Of a DNA stretch of 64,000 nt, positions 3,000 to 58,337 are shown in pieces. The notes under the pieces were generated by a model. It ran no database searches. It was not told the origin of the DNA and worked only from the letters and a program-made list of their open reading frames with translations. A program made the position numbers and the translations under genes. Location of the stretch: assembly GCA_010015675.1 (NCBI GenBank), contig ML977018.1, forward strand, positions 246,166 to 310,165, written 5' to 3'. Origin of the DNA: Byssothecium circinans. Lineage: Eukaryota; Ascomycota; Dothideomycetes; Pleosporales; Massarinaceae. Positions within the stretch are counted from its first letter, which is position 1, and every line of letters starts with the position of its first letter.

Positions 3000-4412
3000 A
3001 TGGCGACGACCGCAACTGAGCTGCTGCACCACCCCCCATCTCTACCACCTACGCTCGACAAGATGCCCGCCCTCCGCCGGCACGACTCAGAGCCTGAATC
3101 GCGAGCGCGAGCATTGACGGAGACACCATGGCCAGGCCCGCCGCGACTACCGAATGCAGCCCTCCCAACCAAGCCCAAAGCATACAAACCAAAAGACCCA
3201 TACGACAGAACGCGGTATCAATGCATTGAGGCGAAAAATCCGGAGAAGTATCCCAATTATGTCGTCACATTTGCCTATCTGGCTCAAGGCGCTGCCAACG
3301 CCGTTTTCCAGATACAGCCATACACGGGGCAGGTCGGGTTGAGTTATCGGTTTGTGGATAATATCGATAGAACGAACGTTCCGAACACGATGTTCTCGAA
3401 CCGGCTTCTGAGGGTTAGCAAGGGCATTCCCAAGACGCTTTCTTTCGCAGAGGTCAACCGGGGGTACGAGACGATGATCAAGCCTCTATTCGCCGGTGCT
3501 TCATCTACATCAGTAGAAGATAAAGCGAGCAGCAATGGGAATGGAACGTCGAATGGGCACCTCGCCAATGGATCCCCACAAACCACGGCGCCGTCGTATG
3601 AAGAGCATCTCATGGAAGCTGAGGGTGTGTCATTCGATGATACAATCGCCCGCTATCTACACAGCCTGATGAAGGACCACGACGACAAATGCGCCCTCGG
3701 ACCCTGCGACAAAGTCCCGCACATGGAATCCCGCGGCATCCTCCTCCCAGACATGAGCTCCGTCCCGGGATCCTCTCTCATGATCGAGCTCAAACCTAAG
3801 TGGCTCGCTCAATCGCCCACAGCCCCTCGGGATTCGTTCAAGTGCCGAACCTGTGCCCTTCAAGCCCGCCGCGCCAGCAACGGAAAAGCGCAGCCCCTTT
3901 CTTATATCTGCCCCTTGCACCTCGTCGCCGGAAACGAGCAGGAGATTTCTAGATTCCTTCGCCCCCACGTCTTTAGGCACTTCATGGTTAACAGCTCGAA
4001 CCCTGCAATCAACATCGATCACGATATCGAGTCCATTCTCGCCCGCGCCACCTCCTACCTAGCCACAGGCCCCGGCCACGCCCTGCTAGCTCACATGCGC
4101 GCGCTGCAAATGTCACATGACGTTTCCGGACCGCCTGACCCTGCTGTCCCACTCCCTAGCAACCGCACATTTAAGCGTCTCCGCGTAGCCATGACTCTGA
4201 GAGACTGCAGCATGTTTGTCAACATCCCGTATGCGAAGGATAAGCCAATCGAGGCCAAGCTCGCGGATTTGGACTTTAAGAGTATGGAGAAATTGATGGA
4301 TTGGGCGGGTAAGGAGAGGGCGCTGAAGAATGGGGGATGGTATACGCAGGTTGATAAGGAGAGTAGATGTCAGATTGCGGGGGCGTGGAAGGATTGTCCG
4401 TGGTGGGTGTGA
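3000..4412 (+). CDS. IPK1: Inositol-pentakisphosphate 2-kinase
   Basis: Single-exon, 470 aa. Predicted to phosphorylate Ins(1,3,4,5,6)P5 at the 2-position to give phytate (InsP6), the last step of the inositol polyphosphate pathway linked to mRNA export. Evidence: a nucleotide-binding N-lobe with FAYLAQGAANAVFQIQ (family pattern GxAN), and the signature around residues 261-267 (MIELKPK, the E-[VIL]-KPK motif). A Cys-containing segment FKCRTCALQ and a C-terminal catalytic region with MTLRDCSMF and ADLDFKS follow. A 70-residue Pro/Arg-rich leader precedes the kinase; an in-frame ATG at 3063 could be an alternative start. A Ser/Asn/Gly-rich loop near residues 175-200 is a lineage-specific insertion. 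Confidence 0.85.
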   Translation: MATTATELLHHPPSLPPTLDKMPALRRHDSEPESRARALTETPWPGPPRLPNAALPTKPKAYKPKDPYDRTRYQCIEAKNPEKYPNYVVTFAYLAQGAANAVFQIQPYTGQVGLSYRFVDNIDRTNVPNTMFSNRLLRVSKGIPKTLSFAEVNRGYETMIKPLFAGASSTSVEDKASSNGNGTSNGHLANGSPQTTAPSYEEHLMEAEGVSFDDTIARYLHSLMKDHDDKCALGPCDKVPHMESRGILLPDMSSVPGSSLMIELKPKWLAQSPTAPRDSFKCRTCALQARRASNGKAQPLSYICPLHLVAGNEQEISRFLRPHVFRHFMVNSSNPAINIDHDIESILARATSYLATGPGHALLAHMRALQMSHDVSGPPDPAVPLPSNRTFKRLRVAMTLRDCSMFVNIPYAKDKPIEAKLADLDFKSMEKLMDWAGKERALKNGGWYTQVDKESRCQIAGAWKDCPWWV

Positions 4413-47870: not shown

Positions 47871-48676
47871 GTGATGGTGAGGCGGTGGTTGGAGGTGGAA
47901 GACACCCTAGATGTTGAGATTTTGGAGAATTGAATTTGGGGTGGCGTCTGGGAAGGAGAAGGGAGATATGGCACTGGATAGTTCAAGCTTGCTAGAGGGT
48001 TGGTTTCTCTACCTCTTCCTATAGAGTTACTTCTTATATAAGCGAGCCTGGATGCTTTTGTGATCACCTGGACAAGGCGGGATCGAAGCTTCGCAGGATT
48101 TCCTATACCTGCAGTGTATTGAGGGAGTATTGCTTCGATTCTTCAAACACTGTGACGCTACCCTGGGGACAGCACGCGGGACAGGCAATCGAGATCTCGT
48201 ATCATGCGAGATGGCGGGTGAGGCTGGCATGCATATTGGATGTTTCGTTCCAAACTATTTGGTACTTGGTCATGAGGCAACTGTCTCACCTGCCCTATGT
48301 TGTGTAGCCTCGGAGGTGCAATGTCTCAAAATCCTGGGCTTTAGCAAGCAAAGAGTCAAGCCTGCTGCGCCGCGTCTGCCTCGGATGAGTCGAGGCGGTT
48401 TTGTCCGAAGACGGTCAAACTATTACATATTAGGTGATGCTCTGAGGCGGAGGGAGAATCACGTGCAGCTGCGCCACTGTGGCTGCTTCACCCAATCACC
48501 CCTCGGAACCAGTAGGCGCACTCCAGGCATCAGCAATTGCACCGCAACGCTTATAGGAGCCGCGACGACGCTTCAGGCAGCCGTTTACGACTCTCCCATA
48601 TGTTTGAATCTCCCGCCGTCTCTTGACGCCGTTGCGCAAATCGAACCCCCCCACAGTGCGCATCATCTCATCCAAA
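47871..48676. other. Intergenic, upstream of the kinase-protease gene
   Basis: About 800 bp. A frame is open upstream of 48677 but lacks a sensible start. No other feature is seen. Confidence 0.45.
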
Positions 48677-51600
48677 ATGGAGACGATAAGTCGTCTGCCG
48701 CGACGCCTCACACAGCTCTACTCGGACACGAAAGCGTCCTGCGATGCCGTCGTAGAGCAGGACACGCCCAACGCGCAGCCCGAAGTGAACGCGCTGCACC
48801 GGAAATACCGTATCCAAAAGGACCGGCTGATCGCATGGGGCCTGGAATGGAGCGACAACACCAAGGGCAGTCAGGAAGACATCGACGAGGGCGTGGAGCG
48901 GGCAGGCCTGACGGGGACGGTGACGAGCGTGCTGGGGACCATCAAAGACATATTGGATGAGGCAGAGCGAATGCACCCGCCCGCTGTGGCTGCAGGTGCC
49001 AAAACGCTGTCTGGAGAGAAGAGCCGGCCTCCCGCATCTGATCCACCCTCGTGGGCGGCCACCGACAGGTCACGGTACGAAGACCTCGCCAAGGATCTGA
49101 CCGCATCCATCGACATCCTCTACAACCTCTCAAAAACACGCCGGACCCAGCGGGAAGGCGGTCGTGGCCCCAGTCCTAGCAAGAAAGCTGCCTCAGTGCC
49201 CCGTCGTCCCACCGGTTCAGTGTTTCTGAAATCCCAGTACAGCGCTTCCGACGTCACCCTCATCAATCCCGCTACTATTCCGCAGGACTTCAACATATCC
49301 TCTGTATCCAACCTACCGCCCCGCCTGGACCCCTCGGATCTCGTCCTCCCTGAAGAGGAGCCACCGCCCTACGAGAGCATTGGCAAGTCTTCGATCCGCA
49401 TCATCGGCAAGCTTTGCACCAAACATAGCTCGACAAATCCGTGGAAAACAGACGGCAGCAAGAGCATCGAAACCCCTGTGCTTGTAGAGTACGCGACCTA
49501 TGACCCGGCATATCGTTCCACTGGAGTTCCACCCCCTACAGACCGTCTGGAGACCCTTCTTTCAATTCTGGCCAAACTGGCAAACGATCAGAGCTCCCAC
49601 GCAGCCCTCACATGTCGGGGATACTTTGAAGATCCAGCACAGCCCAGGTTCGGCATTGTGTTTGAGCTTCCGTCCTTCGTCTACTCGGGTGCTTCTGACT
49701 CCCACAAGTCTGTGGGGGAGCTGCGCCCCGAAACTCTGCTGAGCGTACTGCAAACGGGCTCCAAATCACTGCACAACTCAAACAGCCGTACTCCGGCACT
49801 CGAAGACCGTTTCCGTCTGGCCTTTACTCTCGCCTCCACATTCAACAAGATCCATGGTGGCAACTTCACCCACAAGGACGTGAACAGTAGCAACATCTTG
49901 TTGTTCCGAAAGAACAAGCCCCAGTCGCCGAACAGTAGAGCACTCGATTTCGCTCTGCGATCACCTGTGATCTGCTCATTCGATCTCTTCTCAGAGTACG
50001 ACATCGAGCCTACTAACACAATGCCGCCCCTAAACATTTACCGCCATCCGGAAGACCCCAAGTTTACGGGAGAAAAGGGCAAGCAGCATGGTCCTCAATT
50101 CGACCTCTACAGCCTGGGCCTGATTCTTCTCGAGGTCGGCTTGTGGCAACCGCTTGCTGATCTGTGGAAGCCCAAGTACACGCTTGCCGACTTTAAGCAG
50201 AGGGTTGAAGAAGTCTATATCCGGCGTCTGTCGTCTAAGTGTGGCACTGCCTACGAGCAAGTTGTGCGCGACTGTTTCTGGGCGGCTGATCGTATCGCAT
50301 CTGGTGCAGAAGGTCTGCAGAACTTTTCGCAACTCTACAACCGCATAATCATTAGGTTGCAGCGGTGTTGTCTCCTTGATGAGGTCGAGCCAGGCTTTGA
50401 ATGGGGCGAGTTTGGTGGCGGTGCACCACACATCCTCGGCCCATCACCACTGAAGCGCAAATCTGCAAGTCACGCCCAGGAAGCAGAGCTGCCCTTGAGC
50501 CCTTCATTAAGAAGTGCCAAGCGCTGGGCTCTGGAGAAGAGCTCACACGCTCTTCAACGTACACGGTCGTTGTCCAAATCTTCCCCCAAGAACTCGCCAA
50601 ATCTTTCGCGACACGGCAGCCAACGCTCGCAGCACTCGCCGCACTCTATCCGTCATTCCATCTCTCAGCTCATGACGCCAAAAGAAGAGTCTTCGCTGGA
50701 AATGGATTGGGAGCAACGTGATCCGCTTGAAGAGTCAGGCACTTTGATTGACACGCCGCCAGATTCACAGGATTTTGACGAGCGTTCAAATACCACCACT
50801 CCACGCCCAAGCGCATCGCAAGCAGAGTTCACAGTGACCCCGCCGAGGTCCATGTCTCTCAAGGACTACAAGGACAAGATTACGCTGATCCAAAAAGTTT
50901 GGCGACAAAGAAAGCAGCGCCGCACAAACACCATTGGCGCTTTGATCACTGACGGCATCCGTCACTGGCCACAAGCAGCCATCGGCTACCCCACACCAGA
51001 GCCCGAAGACAAAACTCAACAGTACGAAACTCATTCTATCCACATTCAGCGACACATGGATCAAAGCAGTAGTCCAAAGCGCTCGTCTTTGAACATTAAC
51101 ACCGATGTCGAGCCCACACCCCGCCCAAAGATCCGACTCCACCCCGCGCAATTCCCAGCTGAGGTTCTCGACCAGTGGGAGCACCAAATGCTGCCTCGCT
51201 TGGAGCGGCTCATCGAGCGTGCATTAAAGGAATCTGAGGAAACGGTCAGCATCGACCTCGTCGCTATGGGCGAGACCGCAGACAAAGCCCGTCCCACCAT
51301 CTTCGTCACCTGCAGCAGCGTTCCGACAGTGAAGAAAATCCTGAGCCGCAAGTTCAAGTACGACGCGGCAATCTACGACCTCAAGGTCCGACGCGGAAAG
51401 ATACGACGCTCGAAGATGAACAGATCCAGCCGTCGTCGCCGACTTCCGCACCGCTCTATGATGAACACTGATAGCTACGGCGACATGCATGTCATGAACC
51501 CATACCACCAGCAGCGACCCGTCTGTGGAGCCTCCATCGGAGCCTTTCGCGGCGACCACCTCCCTCCCGTCTCTTATGGGGGCGTCGTCCTTGTCGACGA

Positions 51601-53059
51601 TGAGCCCTTGGGAATGAGTATGTGATTCCACCTCCACCTCCGACAGAAGCTAACAAGCTAGGCGTGCATCATCTCCTAGACGTTCCATCTGATGACGAGA
51701 GCGAAGTTGGTGACGAGAGCCCTGCGCCGGTTCTCTCAAGCGCAAATGCAAACAACTGGCTCATGGGCATGGGTGCGCAGCCTGGCGTGCAAGTTGCGCC
51801 CAACTCCCCCATGCCCCTGTGGGATCTCGAGATCTCGGATGACGAAGCCTTCAAAAGTGACGACGATGGTTACGAGTCACTCAACCTGTCTGACGACTCC
51901 GAGTTTGACTCAGACGAAGAGTCGGAAGCAGAGTCTGAGCTTGTTGATTCGACGATCTCAAGGGCGACGACAGGTGATATTGAAGGCATCGAAGTCGGTG
52001 ATGGTGAAGAGATTAAAATCACCCAGCCGGCGATCGATGACGTCGACGATGACTTCTTTCCCAATGATGAGGATCGCGACGACGACCACCTTGACTCGCA
52101 TGAGCTTGGCCACGTACATGCTTCCTCCGGCATCCGCCGCTGGAAGAAGGACGGCATTCTCCACGAAATCGACTGGGCACTCCTCAAGATCAACGACGAG
52201 CGCTTGCAACCCTACAACCTCGTTCAGGGGGGTCGTCGCTTCTGCCTCAACCGCAACATCTCGGCCGACCAGCGCAACATCTCAACCAAGCTCGAACAGC
52301 CCGTCAATAGGCGCCACTACAGACCTGAGGAAGACGAATACCCAAATGGTGTCGCCAGCGCCAACAGTCTTGGTGGGTTGAATGTCCATTGCTTTGGACG
52401 CACAACAGGACTGCAGGGAGGGATGGTCGGGCCCGCTATGAGCTCTGTGAGGATCTATCATAGGAAGACATTCTCCCGGAGCTGGCACGTCGCTGGCGGG
52501 TTTGGTGGTATGTACCCTTGGCACCGTTCACATACTTCCACTGTCGGATTCATAGCTAACAATGCTCACAGTCGGTGGCGATTCCGGTGCTTGGGTCATC
52601 CAAAACGAAACCCACCGCGTCGTCGGCCACGTCCTCGCCTGGTGCGAACGCAACAAAATCGCCTACATTTGCCCCATGGAGGTCCTCCTCGAAGACATCA
52701 AACGTACGCTCGGCGCCAAGCACATCTACCTCCCCGGCTCGATTGAGGAAACGCGACACATCATGAGGAGAAACAAGGTCACCATCAAAGACAAGGACGA
52801 AAGTCGTGTGGAGGAGCTCGAGGTCGGCGTGGAGGGCTTGGGGATTATGGATAGTCATGGGCCTGTGGGGACGTCGCCGCTGCAGACTCAGACGTCAGGG
52901 TCGGGGTTGCCGTCGCCGCTCAGACGGAGTAGGATTGGAGCGCTTCCTATGCTGAATACGGGGAGTGAGAGCGATAAGGAGAATTTACCGGTGTTGAGGA
53001 GCCGGGTGATTAAGGTTAATGAGAGGGCGGGGCAGTTGGAGATGGTGGGTGTGCCGTGA
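48677..53059 (+). CDS. HeLo-like / kinase-like / trypsin-like protease fusion, 1424 aa
   Basis: Exons 48677-51617, 51662-52507 and 52572-53059, with introns of 44 and 64 nt (GTATGT donors, CTAAC branch sites). Residues 1-100 are helical with RIQKDRLIAWGLEWSD, recalling HeLo/prion-inhibition domains. Residues about 300-560 are kinase-like: FTHKD401VNSSN406 (HRDxxxxN) and D436LF for DFG, but no clear glycine loop or β3 lysine, so perhaps a pseudokinase. A disordered region with an IQ-like IQKVWRQRKQRR follows. The C-terminus (about 945-1330) is trypsin-like: CGASIGAF, GMSVHH984, D1151WALLKI (compare DIALLK), and GGDS1267GAWV. An acidic insert separates His from Asp. Possible cell-death or immune effector; architecture seen, function inferred. 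Confidence 0.8.
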
Positions 53060-53584
53060 GCGTGATGTGATGGATGAGGGAATCGTGTTGGGGTATAGGT
53101 ATGGGTATGAGGGGAGTGTTCGCATGGATAGGCGCTTTCATTCATTGATACCCTGGGGATTCTTTTGTATATGTTTTTGGCATGGGTGTGTAAGCGTGTA
53201 CATATGCGTGAATGATAGTAGTTCTACTCAAGCGTGGGTGTGCAGAGGGCTGTGCGGCGATGTGTCGGAAGTCTGGCGGAGCTTTGCATATATTCTCGCA
53301 GGTAGATGGGCATCTGTTCGTTGACCGCCTAGTGGCGGCTCTCGCTCTGAGCTGTTGGTGAGAGGATGTTGTTAGCATCAAAGATCTATTGTGTCAAGCT
53401 GTGTAAAGGCTGTGCGAAGGCTGTGCGAAGGCTGTGCGCGCAGGGGTCGGAATTACTTCGCAACCCCCCTCACGCCCTTCATCAGTCCTCAGCTGCGCAG
53501 AAGACATATTTCACGAATGCGCGTCACTTCAGTCAACAAGCTGGTTTTCCTGGATATGCAACTGGCTAGGAATTGTCGCTTCCG
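53060..53584. other. Intergenic with an 11-bp triplicated motif
   Basis: Separates the two large recognition-type genes on the same strand. AAGGCTGTGCG occurs three times in tandem at 53406-53438, close to the HET gene start. Otherwise featureless. Confidence 0.5.
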
Positions 53585-56500
53585 ATGTCCACCGAACACT
53601 TTCAGTATATGCAGTTGGAAGAAGGTCAAATTCGACTCTTGGGTCTGCGACAAGGCCGCAATCAAGATGAACGCATCGAATGTGAGCTTTACATTTGCGA
53701 GCTAGACAACACTCCGCCATATGAAGCTTTATCTTACGTTTGGGGCGACCTGCATATCACCCGAGTTATTTCACTGCAAGGCTCAACGTTTCGAGTACCG
53801 GAAAATCTTTACAATGCGCTAAGTCGTCTCCGACAACGTCACACAAACCGGATTCTGTGGGTCGATGCTATCTGCATCAATCAAAGCAATGATGCCGAAA
53901 GGAGAAAACAGGTCTCACGAATGGGAGACATATACAACAAAGCCGAGAGTGTCGTGATTTATCTCGGTGAACCGACAGAGGCAACAGACCAATCAATGGA
54001 CTACATGATGCAGATCGAGGAGAGGGGAATATCGCAAATGCCTCCGACGGTTAAGCTCTCTGAGGTCACTGGTAGAGAGGACGACTTAAGGCTTGAAGGG
54101 TTTCGAGATATTCTGTCCAGACCTTGGTTTCAGAACATATGGGTACTCCAAGATATCTTTAATGCCCGGGCCGCAGTTGTGCATTGTGGCTCCAAAGCTG
54201 TGTCTTCAAAGACCCTCGCCCGCGCCTCCGAATTATTGCTGGACAAGACAGACCGTCTGTCACAACAAGTCTTGGACCTAATGGGCGGATCTCGAAGAGA
54301 CGACCGAACGAAATATCAACTCTACGATCTTCTGCAGCGGTTTCAGCACGCAGAAGCGACAGACTCGCGAGATAAGATCTATACCCTTTTGGGCATGGTA
54401 GATGATGGGTATTCGAAGGCGACGATCTTACCGGACTATTTCCTGTCTCAGAAAGATTTGATGCGTGCAGTTATCGCACATCTGTGCTTCTGCGAGTCGA
54501 GTAGTGTTCCTGAACCTCCATATGATACGATCGATGAATTATTGTCGAACCTTAATCCGATCGACAATGACATTCTAGAGAAGATTTTCGAGTCCTCGCA
54601 GGAAATCGATTTGGAGTCCCTACTTCGACATGGATCGTATTATATCAGAATTAACCGCTCTCTTATTGAAGCTGCAAGCCGGAACAAGACCAAAGGAGAT
54701 GAGATGGTTGAACTCCTTCGCAGAGCAATTGGCCAGGAGAGGTCTTCTTCCCCAACTCCATCAGAAACGTCATCAGTATTCTCGGACGTCTCTGCGCCCT
54801 CAACGAACACTTCGTATCCGTCCGAGAATGTTGAGATCTCCGTTACGCACGTGGTGGAAATTTTGCTGACCCAAGACGCCTTCGCTGATCTATGCCGTGG
54901 AGGTTTTCATCGCGAGGACCTGGAGCCGGCTAGATTCACCAATAATTTACGGCGCATGTTGAAGACCTTCAGCAGGACGCTCCTAGGTGAAGGTCAATCT
55001 TATAGTGCTCGGCTTACGGCGCAGCTAATCCTTGGTGGTTCTCGCCGTATGGCAGCGCTAATCAGGGCCCGCTATGATCCGAGCTATGAGCATATCGGCT
55101 CAAAACTGATTGATTCCAACTTAGACTCCACGACAGAGACTGAAAGACGATCTCGAATCGAGAAGTTTATTCAGCAGCTGAATGCAGCGAACATTGAGGG
55201 GACGAAACAATCTCTGGATGCCATCGAAGATAATAGTGATTCAGAGGACGATCCAGACACTGCCTTGCACGAAGGACCAGCCGGAGGCTCTTCGCTTGAC
55301 GAAATCGAGAATTTCATCACGTCCTGTCAAGCTTTCGAAGCTCTGCTAGAATCTCTCAGATCTTTCCTGAAGCTTTCAAAGTTTCAAGACGTATCGCCCT
55401 CAGTGGCGGTGCTGAACCATGTACAACCCCAGTCTATGGATCAAGTCCCCTTACAAACCGACCCAGATGAGCCGTTACCAATGCTGAAGGAGTATTCAAG
55501 AGGAAGAAGTCCCATAGCTCTTCCCGACTTAGAGCTACCGAAAGATGCATTCTGGTTGCGGGTCTACGAGAGGCTATCCAACTGGCTGACTAGGATAGAG
55601 AGACCCAAAGCAGGGCTTCATAGAGTCCAATACACTTGCGTGAGAAGCTCTCCTAACTTATATGGCAAATATATATAGCTGACTTGGGTCGCAGAGCTGT
55701 GGTGAGCCTATGTTCGTGGATGTCAATGAGCTGAAACCTGGGGGACTTGGGCGGTTCCAGGAGCAGCTTACCGCATCACTAGCTGGGCCACAAGGGCAGA
55801 TACCGGCTGAATCCAGAGCGATGTTTGCAGGATTGCCCATGATGCCTCAACGGGCATACGTTGCAGGCGGCTCTAGTGGTGGGGTTCCAAACCTACCTCC
55901 CATGCCTGACCAAACAGGCCCCAAGGAGTCGCCTGGAGGTAGTCGAACGGGATTAGGTGGAAAACAAACTGTTCAAACCGACGACATGGGTGCAGTGCCC
56001 CGTTATCTATTGCTCTGCGTAAATACTCGAAACCTAACCAAGCTCCTCCATGTGGATCTCAGGTACATTGAGAATGACCAATTCCTGTTCGATTGCATTC
56101 GACGTAGGTATTGGGAGGCGAGGAGACATAATTCCTGGCACTATGGGTTGCTCACACCTCAATGGCTGACGGATCGAATGCCTGCTGCTTGGGGAGACTG
56201 GCTGGGGACTTTGCACTTGCGAGTGCCACGAAGCGCGGAGCTCATCGAGGTCAGTTTCTCCCTTAGTATCTCCTGTGAGGTGGCTGTGTCTTGTTAACAA
56301 CACCTTAGTTCCGGCTTGTGCCGTTCCACACGAATATCTGTCCTGATAAGATCAGACTCGGGTTACCGCCCGAGGACCAAGTCAAGGTAGAGAAGAACTA
56401 CCACTACGACCCCTGCCCAACGGATGTTGAAGTCTTGAGCATACCTAAGTTCTCGCACCTCCTCAAGCCCGGTATTCACTCTTACGACTTCTGGTTGAAG

Positions 56501-57095: not shown

Positions 57096-58337
57096 CTACC
57101 GCCCCAGCTCATACAAAACCCCTCCCCTCCCCTTCATCATTCTTCCCTTCTTCAACATCCGCTTCCCCACCCCCCTCCTCGACACACCCGTCTCCTCGCC
57201 CTCGCCCTCAAACACAGACCCCGGCCCAAAGTCCGGCGTGCCCCCAATACTACCAAAGATATCACCCACATAATTCGTAGGCTCGACCCCCTTTTCAAAC
57301 ACCCCATCCCACCCCTCCAATATCCCCTCTACGACCTTCACCCCCGCAAGGTAGATATTCTGAATCGCTGGCGCAAACGCGCCCTGATTCGCCCAGAACA
57401 AATTCTCGGTAGCCGGCTGCCTAGGATACGGACGGTCCATATCAGACGCAGTACGCATAATGATGACGCGCGAGAAGTCCACAAGTCCGGCAGCATGCGC
57501 GCGTAGCAAGGCTTCCAAAGTCGCGTTATCCTCTTGTGCAGTAGTGCAGTACACGCCCGTGCCGTTAGTGACAAGGGCTGTGTAATTGGAAAACGCTTCG
57601 CCCAAGAGCGTGCCGGAGAAGTATACATCGCTGGTCGCAACGTCGCATTCTACAACGGTGGGTGGGGCGGCGCCTGCAGCGTAGATCCCCCCGCCCGTTT
57701 CGTTCGTCGCGTAAAGCGCACGGTAGGCGATGGCTTTGGCGCTGTCGTTTAGTCGAGCCGTTCGAGCGAAGGTCGCGGCGATGTGTCGGAGCGCGTTGTT
57801 GACTTCGAGGACTTCGGTGCCGTAGATGGAGGATGGGTACGCGTCTGGACGCGTGCTGCCTTGGGGTATGTACCCGGTGATGAAATTCGAGGGTAGTTCT
57901 CGCACGTCGATTTCGTACTGGAGCGCTACTTGCACGGCGTAGCGGGCGAATGTCACTGAAGACACGGTAGCGACTTCGGGGTTGATGCCTCCTATCCCGC
58001 CGATCAGAAAGTACGTCTTGGTCAGATCGAAGAAGGGGGAGAGCGTGAGCGCGGTTAGGGTCACTGCGGCGTTTATCTCGGCTTCGCCGGTTACGAGTTG
58101 GCAGACCGATGCGTCGGGGGTGCAGTGCGCTTCTGGGAATAAGGGGGAGAAGCCGGGGACTGTGATGTTTTGGGCGAGGATGTCGAGGTCGGGCTTGTGC
58201 CACCATATTTCGGCTTCGGGGGAGAACATGGATATTATGAAGACTTTGGGGGAGAGGCGGGAGGGTGGGGAGGGAGACCGTTTTGTGGGGTTGAGGGGGA
58301 GGAGCGCTGTGAGCACACGTGGAATGGAGAGAAGCAT
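57096..58337 (-). CDS. Purine nucleoside permease (NUP family), 413 aa
   Basis: Single exon. A short hydrophobic leader MLLSIPRVLTALLPLN precedes the family core: KVFIISMFSPEAEIW, FLIGGIGGINPEVATVSSVTFARYAVQVALQYEID, YGTEVLEVNNALRHIAATFARTARLND, ALLRAHAAGLVDFSRVIIMRTASDMDRPY, and NIYLAGVKVVEGILEGWDGVFEKG. Related proteins are described as nucleoside transporters in Candida, yet the fold resembles nucleoside phosphorylases and lacks multiple membrane spans, so the biochemical role is uncertain. The C-terminal 40 residues are basic (GVGKRMLKKGRMMKGRGG). Confidence 0.85.
   Translation of the reverse strand: MLLSIPRVLTALLPLNPTKRSPSPPSRLSPKVFIISMFSPEAEIWWHKPDLDILAQNITVPGFSPLFPEAHCTPDASVCQLVTGEAEINAAVTLTALTLSPFFDLTKTYFLIGGIGGINPEVATVSSVTFARYAVQVALQYEIDVRELPSNFITGYIPQGSTRPDAYPSSIYGTEVLEVNNALRHIAATFARTARLNDSAKAIAYRALYATNETGGGIYAAGAAPPTVVECDVATSDVYFSGTLLGEAFSNYTALVTNGTGVYCTTAQEDNATLEALLRAHAAGLVDFSRVIIMRTASDMDRPYPRQPATENLFWANQGAFAPAIQNIYLAGVKVVEGILEGWDGVFEKGVEPTNYVGDIFGSIGGTPDFGPGSVFEGEGEETGVSRRGVGKRMLKKGRMMKGRGGVLYELGR

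What the first reader, a model, noticed from the sequence alone, without database searches (positions are those of the whole stretch)
48677..53059. HeLo-like, kinase-like and trypsin-like protease domains in one polypeptide
The C-terminus carries a full candidate chymotrypsin-type triad: His in GMSVHH (983/984), Asp in DWALLKI (1151), Ser in GGDSGAWV (1267). The N-terminal part looks like a HeLo domain and the middle like a degraded kinase (HKDVNSSN, DLF, no clear β3 Lys). Membrane-active sensor, pseudokinase and protease in one chain suggests a cell-death device in which proteolysis is the output or the release step.
Basis: partly seen in the sequence, partly recalled or inferred. Interest (0 to 1): 0.85.

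Follow-up and report, generated by a model that had tools for sequence, protein, structure and literature searches.

The report
SltB stress-signalling protease, fungal orthologue
The three-part protein is real, but it is the local version of SltB, a known fungal signalling protease for salt and alkaline stress, rather than a new cell-death device; a trace of a cell-death-type domain at its front end is the one unusual detail.

The parts
48677..51617 (+). exon 1 (residues 1-980 and first base of codon 981)
   Evidence: Spliced product identical to P0001
51618..51661 (+). intron 1, GTATGT...CTAG, 44 bp, phase 1; not in A. nidulans sltB, which has a single intron
   Evidence: matches of P0001 and P0304 break here
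51662..52507 (+). exon 2
52508..52571 (+). intron 2, 64 bp, phase 1 in codon 1263, four residues before Ser1267; same place and phase as the published intron of A. nidulans sltB (codon 1138, Ser1142)
   Evidence: PMC4557415 section 3.4; match of P0304 breaks at its residues 1135-1137
52572..53059 (+). exon 3, to the TGA stop
48704..49141 (+). HeLo-related helical N-terminus, residues about 10-155 (Pfam HeLo match at 37-99)
   Evidence: model confidence low
49310..50377 (+). kinase-fold domain, residues about 212-567; Glu271 where the beta3 Lys would be (judged from the model's strand order), HKD..N at 399-406, DLF at 436-438
50888..50920 (+). IQ-like (calmodulin-binding type) motif, residues 738-748, kept in the search-1 set
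   Evidence: Columns 738, 739, 742, 743; Pfam IQ matched by 10 of 34 members at E<=1, position not shown
51155..51394 (+). alpha/beta domain before the protease, residues about 827-906, inside the match to plant NAL1
   Evidence: P0121 model residues from 16-17 on, mapped to this protein
51512..52741 (+). chymotrypsin-type protease domain, residues about 946-1319, with an acidic insert; the stretch includes both introns
   Evidence: P0121 residues 137-513, mapped
51670..51672 (+). His984, likely catalytic His
   Evidence: 99/99 and 117/117
52171..52173 (+). Asp1151, likely catalytic Asp
   Evidence: 98/99 (1 gap) and 117/117
52583..52585 (+). Ser1267, likely catalytic Ser
   Evidence: 90/99 (9 gaps) and 90/117 (25 gaps, 2 other letters)
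48183..48579 (.). five AGGCA motifs (published SltA consensus) at -494, -402, -300, -152 and -102 from the ATG
   Evidence: consensus from PMC4557415 section 3.8

Best explanation
The gene is the Byssothecium circinans orthologue of Aspergillus SltB, a signalling protease. Most likely the N-terminal HeLo-related part and the degraded kinase domain form a sensing, inhibitory prodomain. On cation or alkaline stress the C-terminal NAL1/chymotrypsin-type protease (H984-D1151-S1267) cuts its own chain, frees itself from the prodomain, and then cuts the zinc-finger factor SltA from its long to its short form; short SltA acts on tolerance genes and on sltB itself. Shown here: gene structure, orthology, domains, triad conservation. 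Stated for A. nidulans by others: self-cleavage, SltA processing, phenotype. Inferred: that the same holds in this fungus, and that the HeLo/kinase part is inhibitory.
For: Described architecture of SltB is the same (pseudokinase then serine protease). A. recurvatus protein P0304 (subgenus Nidulantes; 1272 aa like A. nidulans SltB) carries 8 of the 12 published letters tested at their published numbers (N544, Y568, E743, H925, T972, F1126, S1142, G1156), so it serves as proxy; the other 8 of 9 Aspergillus proteins tried were out of register. Through it, 5 of 7 published mutated or catalytic positions outside the His/Asp question are identical here (Y526, E855, F1251, S1267, G1281). P0304's five best places in this genome are pieces of this gene (59-177 bits); the next is 31.6 bits. 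No second copy in the own-genome search. Intron 2 at the published codon and phase. Five AGGCA sites in the 500 bp upstream, 0.93 expected from the window's density (Poisson 0.0027; 0.7% of 500-bp windows reach five); five in 1.15 kb reported for A. nidulans sltB. Protease and kinase folds. Self-cleavage and SltA processing stated in PMC11011638.
Against: Identity to the Aspergillus proxy is 36%. N544 and T972 are T502 and I1087 here. The 500-bp stretch was chosen after seeing the sites; over 1.15 kb the AGGCA count is not significant (Poisson 0.066; 9% of windows), and the whole window has no excess (119 against 135 expected). SltA was not looked for in this genome. The A. nidulans sequence itself was not in hand. 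The 2016 biochemical paper is not held.
Confidence: 0.88

Rival explanations
1. A cell-death executioner of the HeLo/MLKL kind: the protease cuts the chain and frees a membrane-piercing HeLo domain.
For: Pfam HeLo over its cut-off and matched by 34 of 34 members at E<=1; profile comparison with four HeLo genes of the same genome scores 37.3, against 28.4 reversed and at most 21.8 in 20 column shuffles; fungal HeLo-like domains fused to kinase or pseudokinase domains are known (PMC12881547, passages); a HET-domain gene lies just downstream; one family member of 184 reaches the hydropathy of a HeLo start.
Against: No hydrophobic first helix: the best 19-residue hydropathy in the first 40 residues averages -0.23 over 184 family members, 182 of them at or below 0.5 (maximum 1.09), against 1.32-2.02 in four HeLo genes of this genome. 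Of the two other HeLo loci, L021 is -0.30 in its first 40 residues but has such a helix at residue 34 (1.28), and L020 has a hydrophobic start in an upstream piece, seen by eye. Single copy here; loss in A. nidulans gives stress sensitivity. HET matches are common here (153).
Confidence: 0.05
2. An active protein kinase with a protease tail: the C-lobe catalytic residues are kept, so phosphorylation could be an output.
For: In the search-1 set H399 99/99, D401 93/99, N406 99/99, D436 98/99 (1 gap).
Against: The beta3 position is Glu or Asp in 98/99 (1 gap) and 117/117; of the seven Lys of residues 235-345 none is kept in both sets; D401 is Asn in 108/117 and D436 Ala in 95/117 of the search-3 set. 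The SltB paper calls it a pseudokinase.
Confidence: 0.05
3. A pseudoprotease: the fold is kept as a binding domain only.
For: No activity was measured here; Pfam lists no protease family for the window protein; one own-genome relative has Cys in place of the Ser (L025).
Against: Triad nearly invariant in two sets; self-cleavage and SltA processing stated for SltB.
Confidence: 0.03

Closest known systems
SltB (AN6132) of Aspergillus nidulans
   Same: Pseudokinase followed by a serine protease; intron beside the Ser codon at the same place and phase; 5 of 7 published positions identical through the proxy; AGGCA sites upstream; reported in Pezizomycotina only, of which this fungus is one
   Different: 36% identity to the Aspergillus proxy; one more intron; an IQ-like motif; kinase Asp residues kept; catalytic His assigned differently from the paper
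Rice NAL1 (NARROW LEAF 1), plant trypsin-like protease
   Different: The matched chains are 343-409 residues long, so without the HeLo and kinase parts; a profile of this family found no PDB chain by sequence
Ssy5 / peptidase S64 (yeast SPS sensor protease)
   Same: Likeness proposed in the SltB paper; a signalling protease that processes transcription factors (function recalled)
   Different: Pfam S64 not listed for the window protein even at E<=10; in 7 of 34 members, best E 0.093
MLKL and fungal HeLo-kinase proteins
   Same: Order of helical part then (pseudo)kinase; an own-genome HeLo-kinase locus (C27:80175-82124) is 38% identical over residues 262-537
   Different: Extra protease half; no hydrophobic first helix

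Membership tests
SltB | Kinase-like domain and C-terminal serine-protease domain in one chain | tested here: met
   description
SltB | Residues reported by mutation or as catalytic in A. nidulans SltB (N544, Y568, E743, T972, F1126, S1142, G1156) | tested here: met
   5 of 7 identical through proxy P0304; N544 is T502, T972 is I1087. His and Asp apart: published His925 aligns to P1032; published D1037/1046/1049 fit D1036/1045/1048 of P0304, of which only D1036 (= D1151 here) is invariant
SltB | Intron just before the catalytic Ser codon | tested here: met
   Codon 1263, phase 1 here; published donor at nt 3413 gives codon 1138, phase 1; Ser four residues on in both
SltB | Best match of an Aspergillus SltB in this genome, and single copy | tested here: met
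   (proxy A. recurvatus, not A. nidulans itself)
SltB | SltA consensus sites upstream | tested here: inconclusive
   Five in 500 bp (Poisson 0.0027, stretch chosen afterwards); 1.15 kb count not significant (0.066)
SltB | SltA gene in the same genome | not tested
   No SltA sequence was in hand
SltB | Cation and alkaline-pH tolerance; self-cleavage; SltA processing | not testable with these tools
   Needs bench work
HeLo/MLKL-type death executioner | HeLo-family N-terminal bundle | tested here: inconclusive
   Pfam 25.4 bits against 23.2, 34/34 members at E<=1, hhalign probability 72; model pLDDT block means 32-55
HeLo/MLKL-type death executioner | Extreme N-terminal helix that targets the membrane (named so in PMC12881547), tested as a hydrophobic start | tested here: not met
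HeLo/MLKL-type death executioner | Toxicity on activation | not testable with these tools
   Needs bench work
Chymotrypsin-fold serine protease (PA clan) | Double beta-barrel and conserved His-Asp-Ser | tested here: met
   (predicted fold; no distances measured in the model)
Peptidase S64 (Ssy5) | Pfam PF08192 match over its cut-off | tested here: not met
   Not listed for the window protein; in 7 of 34 members, best E 0.093
NAL1-like protease | NAL1 fold including the preceding alpha/beta domain | tested here: met

The most novel reading that the evidence does not exclude
SltB arose when an MLKL-like fungal cell-death protein (HeLo bundle plus kinase) was fused to a NAL1-like protease and tamed: the bundle lost its membrane-piercing helix and became the sensing or oligomerising prodomain of an ion-stress pathway. 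In Dothideomycetes an IQ-like motif may add calcium/calmodulin control, and published His925 is not the catalytic His.
Probability: 0.35. Interest if true: 0.55.

Novelty: already known. Interest (0 to 1): 0.3.

Why it matters
It gives an unnamed, widespread hypothetical protein its likely name and job, and takes it off the list of candidate cell-death devices. It proposes the catalytic His and settles on one of three Asp candidates for a protease in a pathway named as a source of antifungal targets (PMC4557415 abstract), and suggests that parts known from cell death were reused for ion-stress signalling.

Tried and rejected
Family searches for the protease placed nothing: Pfam, NCBIfam, PADLOC apart from a weak match over the kinase, PDB by sequence profile. 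Structure and literature placed it.

Cell-death reading: set aside for the reasons in the rivals. The HET-domain neighbour (53573-55678) was considered as a partner; with 153 HET matches in 48.4 Mb adjacency is weak, and whether the neighbourhood is conserved was not tested (no other fungal genome was at hand).

HeLo fold: the structure searches with the N-terminal model listed kinases in the rows shown; residues 1-205 were barely tested, so that absence means nothing. HeLo controls: 4 of the 6 HeLo loci entered; the other two were looked at, and one of them (L021) has no hydrophobic start in its first 40 residues.

His983 against His984: both are invariant. H984 is preferred because, by eye, own-genome relative L025 reads GLTVAH where this reads GMSVHH; the automatic alignment did not line these up. 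No distances were measured in the model.

Papers seen: PMC4557415 outline with abstract, passages, and sections 3.4, 3.5, 3.6 and 3.8; PMC11011638, PMC12881547 and PMC9815663 passages; all others in search listings only. None of the 5 papers listed has both 'SltB' and 'HeLo domain'; that search covers the held library only. The 2016 biochemical SltB paper is not held; what it says is known here only through PMC11011638 and recall.

Full report
What is there. The window is part of a 48.4-Mb assembly. The gene at 48677-53059 (+) has three exons; both introns are short, GT..AG and phase 1. The 1424-aa product equals a public hypothetical protein of Byssothecium circinans letter for letter, a fungus of the Dothideomycetes, Pezizomycotina. 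The three motifs of the finding sit at the stated residues.

Is it more than chance? Yes. Among 98 full-length homologues H983, H984 and D1151 are 98/98 and S1267 is 90 of 98 with 7 gaps and 1 Tyr. In a wider alignment (99 rows of one search, 117 of one search) H984 is 99/99 and 117/117; D1151 98/99 with 1 gap and 117/117; S1267 90/99 with 9 gaps and 90/117 with 25 gaps and 2 other letters. The 36 rows without the full triad have no GDSG-type motif; I read them as models that stop at the last intron. Both searches list only their best 120 hits, of 338 and 863.

What it is. The SltB paper describes a 1272-aa A. nidulans protein with a pseudokinase and a trypsin-like protease domain, found only in Pezizomycotina (PMC4557415). 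Of nine Aspergillus proteins compared with the published numbers, P0304 (A. recurvatus, 1272 aa, subgenus Nidulantes) is in register: it carries 8 of the 12 published letters tested, and D1036, D1045 and D1048 where the paper gives D1037, D1046 and D1049. Through it Y526, E855, F1251, S1267 and G1281 of the window protein match published positions; N544 and T972 do not (T502, I1087). P0304's five best places in this genome are pieces of this gene. The intron beside the Ser codon is at the same codon and phase. No second copy was found. I conclude that this is SltB.

Two proposals on the active site (inference from alignment and fold). Published His925 aligns to an unconserved position (P1032 here), while the VHH pair is invariant. 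Of the three Asp candidates only the one in DWAL is invariant: D1036 of P0304, D1151 here; the column of D1045 is Asp in 56/99 and 32/117, and that of D1048 is Gln in 98/99 and Asp in 96/117. Whether the 2016 biochemical paper already settled this is unknown.

HeLo part. Support: Pfam in 34 of 34 members, and a profile match to four HeLo genes of the same genome at score 37.3, against 28.4 for the reversed profile and at most 21.8 in 20 column shuffles. Against a membrane-killing role: the best 19-residue hydropathy in the first 40 residues averages -0.23 over 184 members, with two above 0.5 and one at 1.09, against 1.32 to 2.02 in four HeLo genes of this genome. Of the remaining two HeLo loci, L021 scores -0.30 in its first 40 residues but 1.28 at residue 34, and L020 shows a hydrophobic start in an upstream piece by eye. 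Some source names already say HeLo, het-s or HET-s/LopB for family members; none of the papers listed has both SltB and 'HeLo domain'.

Kinase part. In the search-1 set the HxD Asp (93/99), Asn (99/99) and DFG-type Asp (98/99, 1 gap) are kept; in the search-3 set, Eurotiomycetes where named (class recalled except for A. recurvatus), the two Asp are mostly Asn (108/117) and Ala (95/117). The beta3 Lys position is Glu or Asp in both, and R290 is invariant in 34, which may be a charge-swapped version of the usual Lys-Glu pair (inference).

How it works. For A. nidulans the literature states that the SltB protease releases its own pseudokinase prodomain and then processes SltA from 78 to 32 kDa, and that the short form is needed for sltB and sltA expression (PMC11011638 passages). 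Five AGGCA sites lie within 500 bp of the start (Poisson 0.0027, stretch chosen after seeing them), though over 1.15 kb the count is not significant (0.066). I expect the same circuit here.

Verdict. The system is known; the HeLo-related N-terminus, the NAL1 likeness, the IQ-like motif of the search-1 set and the proposed catalytic residues are small additions.

Noticed in passing
window 53573-55678 (+): HET-domain (heterokaryon incompatibility) gene just downstream of the finding; the genome has 153 HET matches, so neighbourhood alone says little.
   Followed up: partly
window 50888-50920 (residues 738-748): IQ-like calmodulin-binding motif (I 93/99; Q, W and R 99/99) in the search-1 set, not kept in the search-3 set (Q in 5/117); a possible calcium link in this cation-stress pathway.
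   Followed up: partly
L025 (G000:C13:329000-333500): A 1025-aa reading frame with GLTVAH, DWAL and GDCGSWV (Cys in place of the catalytic Ser), followed by a hydrophobic stretch that looks like a membrane anchor.
   Followed up: no
L024 (G000:C1:1533500-1537500): Another protease relative with TAAH, DYAL and GDSGGW; the SltB paper found no proteins similar to the C-terminal part alone, so these distant relatives are worth a look.
   Followed up: partly
G000:C27:80175-82124 and G000:C21:400901-402526: HeLo plus kinase-like loci whose open frames (656 and 631 aa) show no protease part, MLKL-like in layout.
   Followed up: partly
window 57096-58337 (-): Purine nucleoside permease (NUP) family gene.
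   Followed up: no
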